From: Rhodothermus sp.
GTDB taxonomy: Bacteria; Bacteroidota; Rhodothermia; Rhodothermales; Rhodothermaceae
Direction: 5' to 3'
DNA: 64,000 nucleotides
Assembly: GCA_030950375.1 (NCBI GenBank)
Contig: JAUZRN010000031.1
Coordinates: forward strand, 1-64,000
A model generated the notes under the pieces. It was not told the DNA's origin. It did not search any database and saw only the letters and a list, made by a program, of their open reading frames with translations. The position numbers were made by a program, and so were the translations under genes. Below are positions 15,575 through 27,102 of the stretch, piece after piece (position 1 is the stretch's first letter; each line of letters begins with the position of its first letter).

Positions 15575-15877
15575 TCAAACGTATTTGTCTCCCCGTACTA
15601 CCTCGACGGGCTGGGCATAAACAATCACGGCATAGTACTGAAAGTAATGCGTAGCAATGTGCTCAATGATCCGATCGGCCACGTTTGGACTGACGATTGT
15701 CTCGATCTTTACATTGTGGCCCTCCCATTCGCTAGCCCGTACGCCGCGTGATCCCTCACCCGACACCTCGGTCAGCGTGTAGCCGCGGGCACCCAGCGCT
15801 TTAAGCTCACGCAGTAAACGCTCCTGCAGCACACGTTCGGCCACAATGGTTACCAGCTTGAGCGTTACAGTCAGCAT
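15575..15877 (-). CDS. sbtB: SbtB-like PII signalling protein, short form
   Basis: A 100-residue trimeric PII-like protein of the SbtB branch, which in cyanobacteria binds adenine nucleotides, including cAMP and c-di-AMP, and controls the bicarbonate transporter SbtA. Diagnostic segments are KLVTIVAERVLQE at the start, the GARGYTLTEVSGEGSRGVR nucleotide loop, and IVYAQPVEVVRGDKYV at the end. The cyanobacterial C-terminal CGP(E/D)GC R-loop with its two cysteines is missing; the chain stops where it would begin. The ATG at 15877 is preferred over an in-frame TTG at 15890-15892 because GGAG lies 9 bases upstream. It starts four bases after sbtA. Confidence 0.9.
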   Translation of the reverse strand: MLTVTLKLVTIVAERVLQERLLRELKALGARGYTLTEVSGEGSRGVRASEWEGHNVKIETIVSPNVADRIIEHIATHYFQYYAVIVYAQPVEVVRGDKYV

Positions 15878-15881
15878 AGGT

Positions 15882-16841
15882 CTATTCTCCAATCCATTGT
15901 GCTAAGGCAAAATACAACGGAATACCCAGCGCCAGATTGAACGGAAAGGTGATACCCAGCGAAGCCGTCAGATAGAAGGTAGGATTGGCTTCCGGAAGTG
16001 AAATGCGTACAGCGGCCGGTGCGGCAATGTAGGAAGCGCTGGCTACCATAGCTCCCAGCACAGCACTGCCCCCCACCGATAGCCCGGTCCAGTGGCCCAG
16101 CACGACGGTCAGCGAACCATGCAGCAATGGCATCACGATACCAAATCCTATCAAAAACGGCCCCACGGTTTTCAGATCACGTAGCCGACGGGCAGCTACC
16201 AGCCCCATCTCTAGCAGAAAGAGCGTCAGTGCTCCTTTGAAACCGTTTACAAAAAAGGGCTCCACCGACTTGAGTCCTTCCATACCTGACAGGTAGCCAA
16301 TGAGCAGGCCCCCTACCAGCAATACCACGCTACGACCGGCCAATACTTCGTGCAACCCTTCTCGCCAGGAGCCGTGATGATTGGAGCGCATAAAGGCGAT
16401 CGTCAGCGCCACTACGATAGCCGGTACCTCCAGTATAGCCACCAGCGCCGGCATGAACCCTTCAGCCGGGTTGCCCTGGAACTGCCCAAACGTCTGCGCC
16501 GCAATAAATGTCACGGCGGATACGGAACCGTAATGAGCAGCAATAGCTGCCGCGTTGATGCGATCCATGCGACCGATCTTACGCAGCACGACGTAGGACG
16601 TAATGGGCGTCAGCAACCCCAAGAACAGCGTCACCAGTACCGGCCCGCGTACTACCGACCAGGGCGTGTGACTCAACTCGGCCCCACCTTTGAGCCCGAT
16701 AGCCAGTAGCAGATAGATCGAAAGCGCCTGATATAGCGGCTCAGGAAACGATAGATCGCTGCGAATCAGCTGGGCGATGATACCCAGCGCAAAAGCCAGC
16801 ACAATTGGGGAGAGCAGATTGGTCAGCAGAATGTCCAGCAT
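15882..16841 (-). CDS. sbtA: SbtA-family sodium-dependent bicarbonate permease
   Basis: A 319-residue membrane protein of the SbtA (DUF897) family, which imports HCO3- with Na+ in cyanobacteria. About ten hydrophobic segments are arranged in two inverted halves. Recognisable segments are LLLAIGLKGGAELSHT, AAIAAHYGSVSAVTFIAA with the substrate-site serines, LVAILEVPAIVVAL, and GAMVASASYIAAPAAVR in the second half. It is shorter than cyanobacterial SbtA (about 370 residues) mainly in the cytoplasmic loop between halves. The gene begins 22 bases after the nhaA terminator and is followed by its sbtB partner. No photosynthesis or carboxysome genes are present, so a role in anaplerotic or pH-linked bicarbonate uptake is inferred. 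Confidence 0.9.
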   Translation of the reverse strand: MLDILLTNLLSPIVLAFALGIIAQLIRSDLSFPEPLYQALSIYLLLAIGLKGGAELSHTPWSVVRGPVLVTLFLGLLTPITSYVVLRKIGRMDRINAAAIAAHYGSVSAVTFIAAQTFGQFQGNPAEGFMPALVAILEVPAIVVALTIAFMRSNHHGSWREGLHEVLAGRSVVLLVGGLLIGYLSGMEGLKSVEPFFVNGFKGALTLFLLEMGLVAARRLRDLKTVGPFLIGFGIVMPLLHGSLTVVLGHWTGLSVGGSAVLGAMVASASYIAAPAAVRISLPEANPTFYLTASLGITFPFNLALGIPLYFALAQWIGE

Positions 16842-22659: not shown

Positions 22660-23400
22660 TTATATTATCGAAGCGTTATGCGCCGGATTTTCAAGGATAG
22701 GCAGACGATCGGTCAGATCATCCAGGGGCGGATCAAAGGTTTCCTGAAACAGCTCAAAACAAACACCGTCGGCTACAGCCGCCAGGGGACGATTCTGTTC
22801 AATGACACGCTGGTAGGTGCGATAGCAGGCCAGCGCTGCCCTGGCCCGCTGCAGATCTTCCGCCGTAAACGAAACGCAGGCGTCGATATGCGCCGGAGGG
22901 GAGGTGTGTAAATGCGCAGGCTTCGCTTCAAGGTCTTCGGGCAACGTAAAAAAAGCCAACCGACGTGGCCCCCCCGAACGCTCACGAAGCGCACAAAAGA
23001 CGCGTTTGACCACCGCATGTGTGACCAGATGATCGGGATGTCCACTGAGGCCATGCACCGGATAGGTCACTACCACGCTGGGCCGATGGCGCTCAATAGC
23101 CCGGGTCACTACTTCTTCCAGGACCCGAGGGTCCAGCTCGGCCAACCTGCCGTCCGGAAAGTTCAGCACGTCCAGGCTAGAAAGCCCCAGGATCTCAGCC
23201 ACACATTGCATTTCTTCAAAGCGAATTCGGCCCATTTCAGACTTGCTGTAGCCGTGATAAAGACGCTGGCGTGTGGCCTCGCCACAGGTGAGTGTTAATA
23301 GATGTACAGCATGTCCTTCGCGTCGCTGCCGGGCAATCGCCGGCGCCGGCCCAAAGCACTCGTCATCTGGATGAGGAAAGATGTACAGCAGCGTAGCCAC
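22660..23400 (-). CDS. PIG-L (LmbE) family deacetylase
   Basis: A 246-residue zinc-dependent de-N-acetylase of the PIG-L/LmbE fold. It has the N-terminal FPHPDDECFG metal motif, GEATRQRLYHGYS, VVVTYPVHGLSGHPDH with the third metal ligand, and a Rossmann-like core. Relatives deacetylate GlcNAc-malate in bacillithiol synthesis (BshB), GlcNAc-inositol or other N-acetylated sugars; the substrate here cannot be read from sequence, and BshB is possible. Translation probably starts at the GTG at 23400 because the family starts immediately before the ATLLYIFPHPDDE strand. It lies 62 bases downstream of the BFD-like gene, so it may be the last gene of the B12 operon or have its own promoter. Confidence 0.87.
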   Translation of the reverse strand: MATLLYIFPHPDDECFGPAPAIARQRREGHAVHLLTLTCGEATRQRLYHGYSKSEMGRIRFEEMQCVAEILGLSSLDVLNFPDGRLAELDPRVLEEVVTRAIERHRPSVVVTYPVHGLSGHPDHLVTHAVVKRVFCALRERSGGPRRLAFFTLPEDLEAKPAHLHTSPPAHIDACVSFTAEDLQRARAALACYRTYQRVIEQNRPLAAVADGVCFELFQETFDPPLDDLTDRLPILENPAHNASII

Positions 23401-23462: not shown

Positions 23463-23669
23463 TTACTCTGACGGTTCCTGAATAATCTCATGAAAGACCG
23501 TCTGACCGGTCTGGAGCATGCGGCGTACATAGGGCAGACAGAGCCGGCAGCGGAGGCCAAAGCGTATGTGGCGCTGTAACGCCTCCACACTGCCGGCTCC
23601 GGTCTGCGCAGCTACGGATTTCAATTCGGCAAAGGTGCGCTGAAAGCAGTAGCAGCGGTCGATGCGCAT
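23463..23669 (-). CDS. BFD-like [2Fe-2S]-binding protein
   Basis: A 68-residue protein with the bacterioferritin-associated ferredoxin pattern: Cys6 and Cys8, 32 residues, then Cys41 and Cys44 (C-x-C-x32-C-x2-C), which binds a [2Fe-2S] cluster. In E. coli Bfd this domain reduces the haem of bacterioferritin to release iron; the same domain occurs in NirB and other reductases. Its ATG overlaps the stop of the BtuG-like gene (TGATG), so it is translated from the B12-controlled message. An electron-transfer role in cobalamin reduction or in making this operon's cargo usable is inference. No bacterioferritin gene is in the window. Confidence 0.82.
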   Translation of the reverse strand: MRIDRCYCFQRTFAELKSVAAQTGAGSVEALQRHIRFGLRCRLCLPYVRRMLQTGQTVFHEIIQEPSE

Positions 23670-24787
23670 CAGCGCCTTTCCTGTACGAGCTCAATATGCG
23701 AAGGAGCGGGCCCCACGGTGAAACGTCCCACCTGGCGGCCATTACGATCCAGGATAACCACGGCCCCTGCAGCTGTGTAGTCAGGCGCGCCGTTTGGTCC
23801 AGCAGCCAACCGGGCGATATAGAGACGCTGCTGCGCCGCATCGTAGGCAACCGCCGTCATGGCGGACAGGTCGGTCGCCGCCGGCACGGTCAGTGTGGCT
23901 GCCAACGCATTGGCGTCGGTATCAATCCGGAAGATCTGTCTGCTGGCGCTGCTGATCGCGTACAGCTCTTCAGCTGCAGGCGCATAGTAGGCCACTTGCG
24001 TACCGTTGGCCGAGCCAAGTTGCACGTCGAACGTGATCCGGGCCACCACCGCACCGGTAGTCCGATTCATGAAGACCACCTGGCCATTGGTTCGCTCAAT
24101 GACTTCAGTGTAATCTTCATTGTAGACGGTTTTGCCCTGACAAACGACCAATAGTTCTTCCTCTTCGTCAATGAACACAGCCTTGGGACCATCGCAGCCG
24201 GGCTCCAGTGTGTCGATTACCTGGTCGGTCGCCGCATCAACCACCGAGATCGTCCGTCCTGCTCCCAGGGCGCCGTAATTAGCCACATACACGCGTCCCT
24301 TATAGGCAACAACACCTTCGGGATAGGGCCCGACCTCGATCGAATCGGCCACAATGGTCCGGGTAACCGGATCGACGGCAAAGACCAACCCATTGCCCCC
24401 AAAGACCATGTTGGTTACATAGGCTTTCTGATCACTGGCAAACGCCACGTACCGGGGAATAGGCAGGCCGTCGATGCGCCCGACAAGCTGTTGAGTAGCC
24501 ACATCAACTACAGCGACATGCCCAACGCTAAACGTGTTGAGTGTCACATAGACGCGGCCCTGATACAGCGTGAGACTTTGCACAAAAGCGTTCAGGGCCA
24601 GCGTTGAGGTCTGACCAGTGGCCGGTTCGTAGAAGGTCAGTGAACCATTCTGGTCGCTGAAGTTACCGCCGTTACCTACCAGCACACCGGTCGTTACCAG
24701 ACGCTCCGTTTCCTCGTCCGGGCCCAGCAGATCGCAGCCACCCAGTACAACCAGGGGTAATGTTATCAGCAGAATCAGGCGTCGCAT
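23669..24787 (-). CDS. btuG: BtuG-like surface beta-propeller lipoprotein
   Basis: A 372-residue YncE-type beta-propeller (DUF5074 type). A type II signal peptide ends in the lipobox LGGC (Cys18), followed by acidic residues (DEETE) that could act as a surface-export signal. Repeats such as GRVYVTLN, KAYVTNM, GRVYVANYG and RLYIARL mark blades of a seven-bladed propeller. In Bacteroides thetaiotaomicron the lipoprotein BtuG has this fold, binds cobalamin tightly and hands it to BtuB. Position directly downstream of btuB under a cobalamin riboswitch supports the same job here. Identity to BtuG by sequence alone is modest, so the symbol rests on fold plus context. Confidence 0.8.
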   Translation of the reverse strand: MRRLILLITLPLVVLGGCDLLGPDEETERLVTTGVLVGNGGNFSDQNGSLTFYEPATGQTSTLALNAFVQSLTLYQGRVYVTLNTFSVGHVAVVDVATQQLVGRIDGLPIPRYVAFASDQKAYVTNMVFGGNGLVFAVDPVTRTIVADSIEVGPYPEGVVAYKGRVYVANYGALGAGRTISVVDAATDQVIDTLEPGCDGPKAVFIDEEEELLVVCQGKTVYNEDYTEVIERTNGQVVFMNRTTGAVVARITFDVQLGSANGTQVAYYAPAAEELYAISSASRQIFRIDTDANALAATLTVPAATDLSAMTAVAYDAAQQRLYIARLAAGPNGAPDYTAAGAVVILDRNGRQVGRFTVGPAPSHIELVQERR

Positions 24788-24815: not shown

Positions 24816-26717
24816 TCACGGAAGTAGTTCCAGACGAAGTTGCACGCGCACGTGGCGCGGCGGCATGGGATAAAAGCGCACGACTTCGTAAGCTGTGTTG
24901 GTCAGATTTTCGGCGCTCAGGCTGAAGGACCACCGGATCCGGGCTATCTGCGGGGTCAGACGCAGATGGGCATCGAGCACGGTGAAAGGCGCCAGAGCCT
25001 GGGACTCGTCGCTGGTAAGGTAACGACGACCAGTATGGCGCGCGTTCAAGCTCAGGCCTACAGGTCCGACCTGCACATCTATAAAGGCCTTGAGCTGGTG
25101 CAGGGGTACATAGCGCAGCTGGTGTCCGTAGGCTCTGGTAGCAGGATTCGAGCGGTCTTCGGCCCGAGTCAGCGTGTAGAAAAGCCCTCCCTGCAGCCGG
25201 AAAGAGGCGGTAAAGGGCACGTGGGCCCGGAGCGAAGCTTCCAAGCCGCGTGTGCGGACGCGCCCGACATTGATCGGGCGCCAGAGCTGTACCCCAGGCG
25301 CCACGAAGCCGGGATACCAGACGATCTGCTCCGTCAGGATAGTCCGAAAGGCCGTCAGCTCCAGCGTGAAGGGTTGCCAGCGCGTATACAGACCTGCCTC
25401 GGTGCTCCAGCCGCGTTCGGGCTTCAGGTCGGGATTGCCGCCGGGCTGGAAGAAGCGCTCGCCCAGCGTAGGGGCTCGAAAAACCCGCCCAAGCGCTCCT
25501 TTCACATGTAGCATGCCTTCACGCAGCGCCAGGTTCAGGCCGAGCTGCGGGCTAAGAGCACGGAAGGCGTGCCCGGCTGTTGCATACAGATCCAGCCGAA
25601 GGGCCGGATAGAGTCGCAGCCGTCCCTGGCGTCCGGCCAGACGAAATGCCAGCGCAATTGCGCGTTGATCGACCTTACGCCGCAATGCCGCATGTTCCCA
25701 GCGGCCTTCGAGCTGTACAGTCAGCGCCCAGCGTGCGTGCAGTGCCTGGTCGAGCGTTGTCTCCAGCGCCAGCGCGCGCGTGCGCGTGGTGTCGGCTTCA
25801 CCGGCAAAGCGATTAACGTAAGCCAGCTGCGTGTGCTGGTAGCTGCTACGTACCGTAAGGCGTCCGGCCGGCAGCGGCCATTCGGCCAGCAGGAGCACAC
25901 GCTGTTGCCGGTCGGTCTGTTGGGCATCAACCGGCGGCGCATTACCCGGTCCGGGCAGGCTCCGGCGCGCTTCCGTCAGCCAGACTGTTCCTTCGAATCG
26001 TCCGTAGGCTACATAGCGCAGTTTGCCGAAAACCGACGTCATCTGCCGGTCAGCCCCTTCTCGGCGACGCACCGTTGGAGGGGGCAGCGGATTGGGATAT
26101 GGATAGTCGCCGGTAGTTCGACTATGCTCAACGGCGCCCAGCACGGCCAGGCGATTTATTCCGGCATGCGCGACTACTCCCAGACTTTGCTCGCCGTAGG
26201 CGCCCAGCCGCAACGCCATCCGGCCACCCGGTCGCTCCGTCGGTCGGAGCGTATGTAGCCGTACCACACCACCAACGGCTCCTGAGCCATAAAGTGCAGC
26301 CGCTGGCCCGTGCACTACCTCGACGCTTTCCAGCAACACGGTGGGGAGCAGTGTCAGGTCGATCAATCCCGACTGAGGATCGGCGACCCGATGCCCGTCG
26401 ATCAGCATCAGTGTCTGAGTGGCACTGCTGCCCCGTAGTGAGAATGTGGCCAGCCCTCCACTCCCGTAGCGTTTGATAAACAGCCCGGTGCGCGCTTCCA
26501 GCAGCTCGGCCACCGTGCTTCCCCCGGCCCGTTCCAGGTCGGTCGCAGCCAGTCTCCAGAGATGCCGATCGACTTCCTGCGCCGTCTCAAGGCGCTGTCC
26601 TTCGACGACGACGGGGGGCAGCACCAGCGTGGTATCTGCCTGTTCCTGGGCCCGGATGCCTGACACGTACCCGAGTCCCAGCAACAGTAGTCCGTACCGA
26701 AATACCGAAAAGCGCAT
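24816..26717 (-). CDS. btuB: TonB-dependent outer-membrane cobalamin receptor BtuB
   Basis: A 633-residue TonB-dependent transporter. A signal peptide (residues 1-23, ending GIRAQ) is followed by a TonB-box region and a plug domain with TVAELLEARTGLFIKRYGSGG, FSLRGSSATQTLMLIDGHRV and VEVVHGPAAALYGSGAVGGVV. A 22-strand barrel follows and ends in the canonical aromatic-rich C-terminus (HVRVQLRLELLP). It moves cobalamin across the outer membrane using TonB energy. The ATG at 26717 is chosen because it starts the signal peptide and directly follows the riboswitch terminator; a longer frame starting at 26819 would run through the riboswitch. The BtuG-like gene follows after 28 bases. BtuFCD are not in the window. 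Confidence 0.95.
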   Translation of the reverse strand: MRFSVFRYGLLLLGLGYVSGIRAQEQADTTLVLPPVVVEGQRLETAQEVDRHLWRLAATDLERAGGSTVAELLEARTGLFIKRYGSGGLATFSLRGSSATQTLMLIDGHRVADPQSGLIDLTLLPTVLLESVEVVHGPAAALYGSGAVGGVVRLHTLRPTERPGGRMALRLGAYGEQSLGVVAHAGINRLAVLGAVEHSRTTGDYPYPNPLPPPTVRRREGADRQMTSVFGKLRYVAYGRFEGTVWLTEARRSLPGPGNAPPVDAQQTDRQQRVLLLAEWPLPAGRLTVRSSYQHTQLAYVNRFAGEADTTRTRALALETTLDQALHARWALTVQLEGRWEHAALRRKVDQRAIALAFRLAGRQGRLRLYPALRLDLYATAGHAFRALSPQLGLNLALREGMLHVKGALGRVFRAPTLGERFFQPGGNPDLKPERGWSTEAGLYTRWQPFTLELTAFRTILTEQIVWYPGFVAPGVQLWRPINVGRVRTRGLEASLRAHVPFTASFRLQGGLFYTLTRAEDRSNPATRAYGHQLRYVPLHQLKAFIDVQVGPVGLSLNARHTGRRYLTSDESQALAPFTVLDAHLRLTPQIARIRWSFSLSAENLTNTAYEVVRFYPMPPRHVRVQLRLELLP

Positions 26718-26751
26718 AAAAAAGCCCGTTACCTCAATGCGAGGTCCGGGC
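26718..26751 (-). terminator. Riboswitch-controlled terminator in front of btuB
   Basis: On the minus strand GCCCGG-ACCTC, GCATT loop, GAGGT, AA bulge, CGGGC, then TTTTTT. The last T is next to the btuB ATG. This is the expression platform of the cobalamin riboswitch: when B12 is bound, this hairpin should form and stop transcription just before the coding region. Confidence 0.85.
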
Positions 26752-26849
26752 CAACGCAGCCATGCCAGAACGCCAGAACGGCCGACCTTTTGGCCGGTAC
26801 GGTCGAACAGCCGGTGCATCAGGCGCGGACCTCAGTTCCCGGAGGCTTC

Positions 26850-27102
26850 GGCCTGACGCCGCTGGCAGGTCTCCTGGCTCACCGTGGGTTCCATCAGGGT
26901 GACGGAACGGATCGCATCGAGCTCCACCGCCGGCCTTCCCATCTGACAGCGCAGACAGTGACCGTCGGCTTCATCGCCCGCCGACCACAACCACGGCTCA
27001 CAGTTGCGGGTACAGCTCCAGATTCCCCGACCAACAGGCCGGGCCACTGGATTCCCTTTTCATCCGCCCGTGGCGGAACCAGCGGCGCATGTCGAAGAAC
27101 AA
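26850..27102 (-). promoter_or_regulatory. Cobalamin (AdoCbl) riboswitch
   Basis: On the minus strand the leader shows, in order, GGTTCCGCCAC near 27080, GATGAAAAGGGAATCCAGTG (27066-27046, the conserved AAAAGGGAA core), GGGGAATCTGG near 27030, TACCCGCAACTGTGAGCC (27014-26997), the GTCACTG segment near 26963, and the B12 box GCCAGGAGACCTGCC (26878-26864). These are the landmark elements of the class I cobalamin riboswitch and occur in the right order. It lies between its promoter and the btuB terminator, so it should switch off btuB, the BtuG-like gene and the BFD-like gene when B12 is plentiful. Ends are approximate. Confidence 0.95.

What the first reader, a model, noticed from the sequence alone, without database searches (positions are those of the whole stretch)
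23463..23669. BFD-like [2Fe-2S] protein translated from the B12 operon
The gene overlaps the BtuG-like stop and would be under the cobalamin riboswitch, although BFD proteins normally act in iron release from bacterioferritin. It may donate electrons for cobalamin reduction before adenosylation, or be part of an unknown step after B12 import. No such role is established as far as I know.
Basis: inference. Interest (0 to 1): 0.5.

Follow-up and report, generated by a model that had tools for sequence, protein, structure and literature searches.

The report
Small ferredoxin in B12-uptake operons
A small iron-sulfur protein gene is built into vitamin-B12-controlled uptake operons in many relatives of this bacterium, and beside the enzyme that activates B12 in a distant group, so it may supply the electrons needed to activate imported B12.

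Summary
A 68-aa BFD-like protein (PF04324, CxC-x32-CxxC) starts inside the stop codon of the btuG-like gene, third gene behind a cobalamin riboswitch. It is not unique to one genome. In its order 84 of 114 genomes carry the family, and in 73 of the 84 it sits with btuB and/or btuG. A riboswitch precedes btuB in all 53 relative loci that could be tested, and in the window. In another class of the phylum it lies in differently built riboswitch operons: directly after the adenosyltransferase gene cobA (5 of 5 loci of one family), or between metH and cobA (8 of 8 loci of another). None of 60 carriers in a hand-picked panel has a bacterioferritin above the curated cut-off, so the textbook iron-release role is unlikely. 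My best reading is a one-electron donor for cobalamin reduction at the adenosyltransferase and/or methionine synthase (0.45); no biochemistry tests it. Against it: a sister lineage keeps the protein in a non-B12 operon (dcd-BFD-rsmE, 41 of 41 loci fetched), two families have riboswitch-receptor operons but lack the gene, and in this class the adenosyltransferase gene lies elsewhere.

The parts
26847..27098 (-). Cobalamin riboswitch aptamer (RF00174), head of the operon
   Evidence: 94.6 bits, gathering 31.5, model 1-189
24816..26819 (-). btuB-like TonB-dependent receptor; an internal start giving a clean signal peptide is possible
   Evidence: Plug and beta-barrel Pfam hits; best NCBIfam hit TIGR01779 137.6 bits, below the equivalog cut-off of 599.7
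23669..24787 (-). btuG-like beta-propeller lipoprotein (signal peptide with LGGC lipobox, read by eye)
   Evidence: TIGR02276 beta-propeller repeats 34 bits; DUF5074 22.8 bits, under its cut-off 27.2; relatives in 142 of 244 class genomes
23463..23669 (-). BFD-like [2Fe-2S] ferredoxin, 68 aa, Cys 6, 8, 41, 44
   Evidence: PF04324 28.2 bits; four Cys invariant in 33 aligned relatives; fold like P. aeruginosa Bfd
22660..23400 (-). PIG-L/BshB-like deacetylase, 62 nt downstream; operon membership unproven
   Evidence: PF02585 111.5 bits; a PIG-L gene lies downstream of BFD in 29 of the 71 loci clustered (recount)

Best explanation
The gene encodes a small, probably cytoplasmic BFD-type [2Fe-2S] ferredoxin that is made with the B12 importer when B12 is short. 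Imported cobalamin arrives as cob(III)alamin; the protein most likely passes single electrons from a cellular reductase to the cobalt, so that the PduO-type adenosyltransferase (CobA-type in the other class) can make adenosylcobalamin, and perhaps so that MetH can be reactivated. Shown here: the gene, its cysteines, its predicted fold, its place in riboswitch operons in several lineages, and its adjacency to cobA and metH in another class. Inferred: co-transcription, cluster binding, the electron-transfer role and the partner.
For: Co-directional riboswitch-btuB-btuG-BFD order; riboswitch upstream in 53 of 53 testable relative loci plus the window. In 32 of 67 loci the btuG stop to BFD start distance is 5 nt or less, and in 54 of 67 it is 60 nt or less (window included). 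Where a DUF6580 and a btuF-like gene are inserted (six loci), BFD stays in the operon. Family f48 of another class: cobA directly upstream in 5 of 5 loci, at -1 to 83 nt, riboswitch in 4 of 5. Family f52: metH-BFD-AAA-dCMP deaminase-cobA in 8 of 8 loci; riboswitch in 4 of 5 tested, the fifth cut short of its upstream part. Family f55, one locus: BFD precedes the B12-dependent NrdJ by 553 nt, no riboswitch found there. Eight relatives that seem to have lost riboswitch, btuB and btuG kept BFD, and the three of them in the panel keep PduO and NrdJ, which fits a step after uptake. Six genomes without a PF08471-type NrdJ still carry BFD in the operon (G129, G130, G194-G197), so NrdJ is not its sole client. 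Cob(II)alamin bound to an adenosyltransferase has its couple raised to about -360 mV, within reach of free reduced flavin (PMC2982820, passages).
Against: In 41 of 41 fetched loci of a sister lineage (f16-f19) the protein lies between dcd and rsmE, with no B12 gene seen. Families f59, f44 and f41 show no convincing B12 context; a convergent Peripla_BP_2 gene in 2 of 6 f59 loci is the nearest to one. Families f3 and f15 lack BFD in 16 of 16 and 6 of 6 genomes, though 12 of 16 and 5 of 6 show an RF00174 match and all 12 of their members in the panel have PduO and NrdJ; so it is dispensable or replaced. An adenosyltransferase is present in 59 of 60 carriers and 20 of 20 non-carriers, so co-occurrence does not discriminate. 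In the panel's carriers of this class PduO lies away from BFD. MetH was not searched for in the window's genome. The Bfd potential that I recall, near -250 mV, is above -360 mV, so the step would be uphill and need the pull of adenosylation.
Confidence: 0.45

Rival explanations
1. A general-purpose [2Fe-2S] electron carrier, or a part of nucleotide metabolism such as supplying a ribonucleotide reductase; B12 operons hold it because B12 feeds NrdJ.
For: Neighbours include dCTP deaminase (41 loci), dCMP deaminase (8 f52 loci), B12-dependent NrdJ (f55, one locus) and class I RNR (L191). In sister-lineage operons nrdJ follows btuG where BFD stands in this order (4 of 4 read, chosen by coordinates).
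Against: Six genomes have no PF08471 NrdJ match yet keep BFD in the B12 operon. Riboswitch operons of f48 join it to cobA, not to nucleotide genes.
Confidence: 0.2
2. It acts on cob(III)alamin itself: reductive removal of the upper ligand (decyanation or demethylation), or hand-over of freshly imported corrinoid, rather than reduction at the adenosyltransferase.
For: Tight coupling to btuB/btuG and, in six loci, a btuF-like gene (PF01497); expression expected when B12 is scarce.
Against: The protein is 68 aa, which leaves little room for a corrinoid pocket (inference); adjacency to cobA and metH fits later steps better.
Confidence: 0.15
3. A true Bfd that releases iron from bacterioferritin.
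For: Domain, cysteines and fold are Bfd-like. Some carriers have ferritin-like proteins below the cut-off, up to 71.4 bits in f52 and f59.
Against: No bacterioferritin above the TIGR00754 cut-off in any of the 60 carriers of the panel; own genome's best is 29.4 bits against 125.55. The Leu5 hotspot position is Tyr here and in 35 of 67 B12-linked sequences.
Confidence: 0.04
4. Hitch-hiking: an old gene order kept by descent, with no functional link to B12.
For: The B12-linked loci are clustered on the tree, and contexts differ between lineages.
Against: Riboswitch operons in f48 and f52 are built quite differently yet contain it; very short spacing persists.
Confidence: 0.12

Closest known systems
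Bacterioferritin-associated ferredoxin (Bfd), Pseudomonas aeruginosa
   Same: Fer2_BFD domain over the Pfam cut-off, CxC and CxxC cysteines, small helical fold (VIA-align Z 6.2 over 52-53 residues, next row 2.6)
   Different: 15-17% identity; no bacterioferritin over the cut-off in panel carriers; conserved residues beyond the fourth cysteine such as P46, Y47, L52, G55; sits in B12 operons
Corrinoid reductases PduS and CobR, and flavodoxin
   Same: Proposed job: one-electron reduction of cob(II)alamin for an adenosyltransferase (PMC2982820, passages)
   Different: Those are flavoproteins, PduS with [4Fe-4S] centres; this is a 68-aa single-domain [2Fe-2S] candidate whose only Pfam match over its cut-off is Fer2_BFD
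Bacteroides btuB/btuG cobamide operons
   Same: Cobalamin riboswitch control with btuB and a btuG-type lipoprotein (PMC12751083, passages)
   Different: The words Fe-S and ferredoxin do not occur in that paper's main text; outside the class only 10 of the phylum genomes drawn carry this BFD family at E < 1e-17

Membership tests
Fer2_BFD domain (PF04324) | Score above the curated cut-off | tested here: met
   28.2 bits against 26
Fer2_BFD domain (PF04324) | Four cluster cysteines CxC...CxxC | tested here: met
   Invariant in 33 rows; spacing 32 in 119 of 120 sequences, 33 in one
Fer2_BFD domain (PF04324) | [2Fe-2S] cluster bound and redox-active | not testable with these tools
   Needs purified protein
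Bfd (bacterioferritin-associated ferredoxin) | Bfd fold | tested here: met
   AlphaFold2 pLDDT 86.8; Foldseek top four are Bfd but E 0.54 at best; Z 6.2 against 2.6 for the next family
Bfd (bacterioferritin-associated ferredoxin) | Bacterioferritin partner in the genome | tested here: not met
   0 of 60 carriers over the TIGR00754 cut-off; own best 29.4 bits; sub-cut-off matches up to 71.4 bits in some other carriers
Bfd (bacterioferritin-associated ferredoxin) | Interface hotspot Leu5 (L, I or V) | tested here: not met
   Leu5 rule from PMC12363616 (passages); the aligned place between the first two cysteines is Tyr in the window; Y in 35 of 67 B12-linked sequences, L, I or V in 26 of 67; I or V in 41 of 41 of the dcd-rsmE group
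Bfd (bacterioferritin-associated ferredoxin) | NADPH-dependent ferredoxin reductase partner | not tested
   No search was made
Cobalamin-riboswitch regulon | RF00174 upstream, same strand, short gaps | tested here: met
   53 of 53 testable relative loci
Cobalamin-riboswitch regulon | Expression falls when B12 is added | not testable with these tools
   No RNA data here
BtuB (upstream gene) | TIGR01779 equivalog cut-off | tested here: not met
   137.6 bits against 599.7; called btuB-like from best equivalog hit and riboswitch
BtuG (upstream gene) | Surface lipoprotein beta-propeller that binds cobalamin | tested here: inconclusive
   Lipobox (by eye) and beta-propeller repeats present; DUF5074 under its cut-off; binding not testable
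Corrinoid reductase | Reduces cob(III)- or cob(II)alamin | not testable with these tools
   Inference from gene context only

The most novel reading that the evidence does not exclude
This BFD family is a dedicated, riboswitch-controlled [2Fe-2S] electron donor for cobalamin reduction, serving PduO-type adenosyltransferases in one class and CobA-type enzymes and MetH in another: a BFD-type ferredoxin with a corrinoid rather than a ferritin client.
Probability: 0.4. Interest if true: 0.72.

Novelty: new variant of a known kind. Interest (0 to 1): 0.55.

Why it matters
What reduces cob(II)alamin for adenosyltransferases is debated even for PduS (PMC2982820, passages) and, as far as I recall, is unknown in most bacteria. 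A small soluble protein fixed in B12-controlled operons across two classes, in one of them next to cobA and metH, gives a named candidate and simple assays. It would also give stand-alone BFD proteins a role beyond iron storage.

Tried and rejected
Rejected: the bacterioferritin role. Rejected as sole client: NrdJ, because six genomes without a PF08471 match keep the gene in the operon. Phyletic co-occurrence with adenosyltransferases does not discriminate: 59 of 60 carriers and 20 of 20 non-carriers have one (the exception is G236); CobA alone is in 12 of 60 carriers and 1 of 20 non-carriers, but the panel was hand-picked.

Led nowhere: phmmer of the window protein against PDB sequences (no match); plasmid search (none); PADLOC (none); promoter and terminator scan (chance level). 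A profile search of PDB sequences gave Bfd only at E 0.11 or worse. The tree of 153 BFD proteins has too few columns: 73 of 149 inner branches open; among the context groups the dcd-rsmE group forms one side of a well supported branch (97).

Print: no paper in the held library has 'bacterioferritin-associated ferredoxin' with 'cobalamin' and 'riboswitch'; 'BFD-like' with '2Fe-2S' and 'cobalamin' gave one paper on Piscirickettsia CRISPRi, seen in the listing only; 'BFD domain' with 'adenosyltransferase' gave none. Searches were read as listings; of all papers I read passages of three: PMC12363616, PMC12751083, PMC2982820. I did not see this association described, within those searches.

Dropped rows: L170 is a btuB locus without BFD, fetched beside the 119 BFD loci. 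L150 was counted as testable by the script but its upstream btuB is cut by the contig end, so I left it out of the riboswitch count (it gave no riboswitch). Genome G163 gave two loci on two contigs and is counted once in 73 of 84. and the large genome searches use stricter filters, so their absences are soft; the Pfam search missed carriers that the A1 profile found.

Full report
What is there. On the minus strand of the window a cobalamin riboswitch (27098-26847, 94.6 bits) is followed by a btuB-like receptor (26819-24816), a btuG-like beta-propeller lipoprotein (24787-23669) and the 68-aa gene of the finding (23669-23463), with gaps of 27, 28 and -1 nt. A PIG-L deacetylase gene follows after 62 nt. 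The protein matches Fer2_BFD just above the Pfam cut-off (28.2 against 26) and is the genome's only such match. BtuB and BtuG are names by best match and context: the receptor is below the TIGR01779 equivalog cut-off, and the lipoprotein is below that of DUF5074. The genome also has a PduO-type adenosyltransferase and a B12-dependent NrdJ, but no CobA-type match.

The protein. In 33 aligned relatives Cys6, Cys8, Cys41, Cys44, Tyr47, Leu52 and Gly55 are invariant. The spacing CxC-x32-CxxC holds in 119 of 120 sequences. A prediction from the window protein and 11 relatives has mean pLDDT 86.8. The best matches among solved structures are P. aeruginosa Bfd: Foldseek E 0.54 at best, not significant alone, but Z 6.2 over 52-53 residues against 2.6 for the next family. 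By eye there is no signal peptide, so I take it as cytoplasmic. It is BFD-like by domain, cysteines and fold.

How general is it. The Pfam model matched 128 of 244 genomes of the class, some only by large NirB-type proteins. A profile of 33 small relatives (A1) found the family in 176 of 244 at E 1e-6 or better. In the window's own order (families f1-f15, 114 genomes) 84 carry it. Of these 84, 73 are linked to btuB and/or btuG: 64 by fetched loci, the three f14 genomes with a receptor but no btuG found, G154 and G218, G177, G209 and G226 by coordinates, and G178 (riboswitch). Eight hold a lone BFD between the same kinds of neighbours that flank the operon in G218, which I read as loss of riboswitch, btuB and btuG; seven of those eight show no RF00174 match genome-wide and G232 shows one (stricter filters). 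In G165 it lies about 78 kb from the operon. G179 and G184 are not resolved (contig ends). The two f21 genomes, outside the order, are also linked.

Riboswitch. Of the loci with btuG, BFD and at least 350 nt above an intact btuB, 53 of 53 have RF00174 there on the same strand (49), as does the window; two of the 53 are the f21 loci. The btuG stop to BFD start distance is 5 nt or less in 32 of 67 loci, 6-60 in 22, 61-200 in 6 and more in 7 (window included). In six of those seven a DUF6580 gene and a btuF-like gene stand between; in the other, L130, the gap is 244 nt.

Independent contexts. Outside the class only 10 genomes among those drawn carry the family clearly. A search of 149 genomes of the class of G447 found 24 clear carriers: f52 8, f59 6, f48 5, f44 5. 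In family f48 (5 loci) cobA, the ATP:corrinoid adenosyltransferase, is directly upstream in 5 of 5, at -1 to 83 nt, with btuB in 4 of 5 and a riboswitch in 4 of 5; G602 has neither. In family f52 (8 loci) the order is metH, BFD, an AAA kinase, dCMP deaminase, cobA in 8 of 8, with one or two small genes between metH and BFD in some; a btuB-like receptor and DUF6580 precede metH where fetched, and a riboswitch was found in 4 of 5 loci tested (L243, L244, L247, L250; L242 stops short of the upstream part; L245 and L246 were not tested). In f55, one locus, BFD precedes NrdJ by 553 nt without a riboswitch hit. Families f59, f44 and f41 gave no convincing B12 context. The f48 and f52 operons differ in build from the window's, which is why I do not think the link is mere descent, although an ancestral B12 operon cannot be excluded: the tree is too weak.

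Against the reading. In 41 of 41 fetched loci of f16-f19 the gene sits between dcd and rsmE, and in 4 of 4 B12 operons of that lineage that I read, chosen because the coordinates pointed there, nrdJ follows btuG where BFD stands here. Families f3 (16 genomes) and f15 (6) lack the gene. Three f3 loci read have a receptor and a btuG-like gene and no BFD (Pfam-checked in two, L193 and L194), with a riboswitch in the 2 of them tested (L193 and L195); one f15 locus read has a receptor at the RF00174 match and no BFD; G228 has riboswitch, receptor and btuG without BFD. All 12 panel members of f3 and f15 have PduO and NrdJ. So the protein is not essential for B12 use, or another donor replaces it.

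Iron. On a hand-picked panel of 80 genomes (60 carriers, 20 non-carriers) bacterioferritin passed its cut-off in 2, both non-carriers; weaker ferritin-like matches, up to 71.4 bits, occur in some carriers of f52 and f59. The Bfd interface residue Leu5, said to be Leu, Ile or Val (PMC12363616, passages), is Tyr here and in 35 of 67 B12-linked sequences, but Ile or Val in 41 of 41 of the dcd-rsmE group. A Bfd-type job on bacterioferritin is therefore unlikely here.

Mechanism. Adenosylation needs cob(I)alamin. [quoted passage not shown] MetH reactivation also needs an electron to cob(II)alamin (recalled). A BFD ferredoxin beside cobA or metH, or made with the importer when B12 is short, fits as that donor. 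The client is inferred; the reductase that feeds it was not sought. I give 0.45.

Verdict. The finding is real and stronger than reported; its function is open but now sharply testable.

Noticed in passing
own genome G000:C53, L258:6200-6280 minus strand: A second B12 riboswitch (AdoCbl-II, RF01689, 47.4 bits) precedes nrdA, nrdB and metE: the B12-independent isozymes.
   Followed up: yes
L252, L253, L254, L255 (sister lineage): Riboswitch-btuB-btuG-nrdJ operons: the B12-dependent ribonucleotide reductase stands where BFD stands in the window's order (4 of 4 read).
   Followed up: partly
L069:1280-1978; L188:1732-2289; L081:5976-6710: DUF6580 (PF20221 in the two tested) proteins recur in B12 operons of the order, of f21 (by cluster) and of f52: a candidate inner-membrane corrinoid transporter part.
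   Followed up: partly
L086, L099, L118, L142, L153, L155, L160, L169: Lone BFD genes between the neighbours that flank the B12 operon in relatives: apparent loss of riboswitch, btuB and btuG with BFD kept.
   Followed up: partly
own genome L256:1834-5898; L183:1773-5498: NrdJ genes that appear interrupted by inteins (LAGLIDADG and intein splicing hits in L183; split NrdJ hits in L256).
   Followed up: no
window 22660-23400 and downstream: A PIG-L/BshB-like deacetylase lies downstream of BFD in 29 of 71 loci and in the window is followed by a two-component pair read by eye.
   Followed up: no
window 15575-16841: Neighbouring genes look like an SbtA-type bicarbonate transporter and a PII-like SbtB partner (recalled from the sequence, not searched), beside several cation antiporter-like genes.
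   Followed up: no
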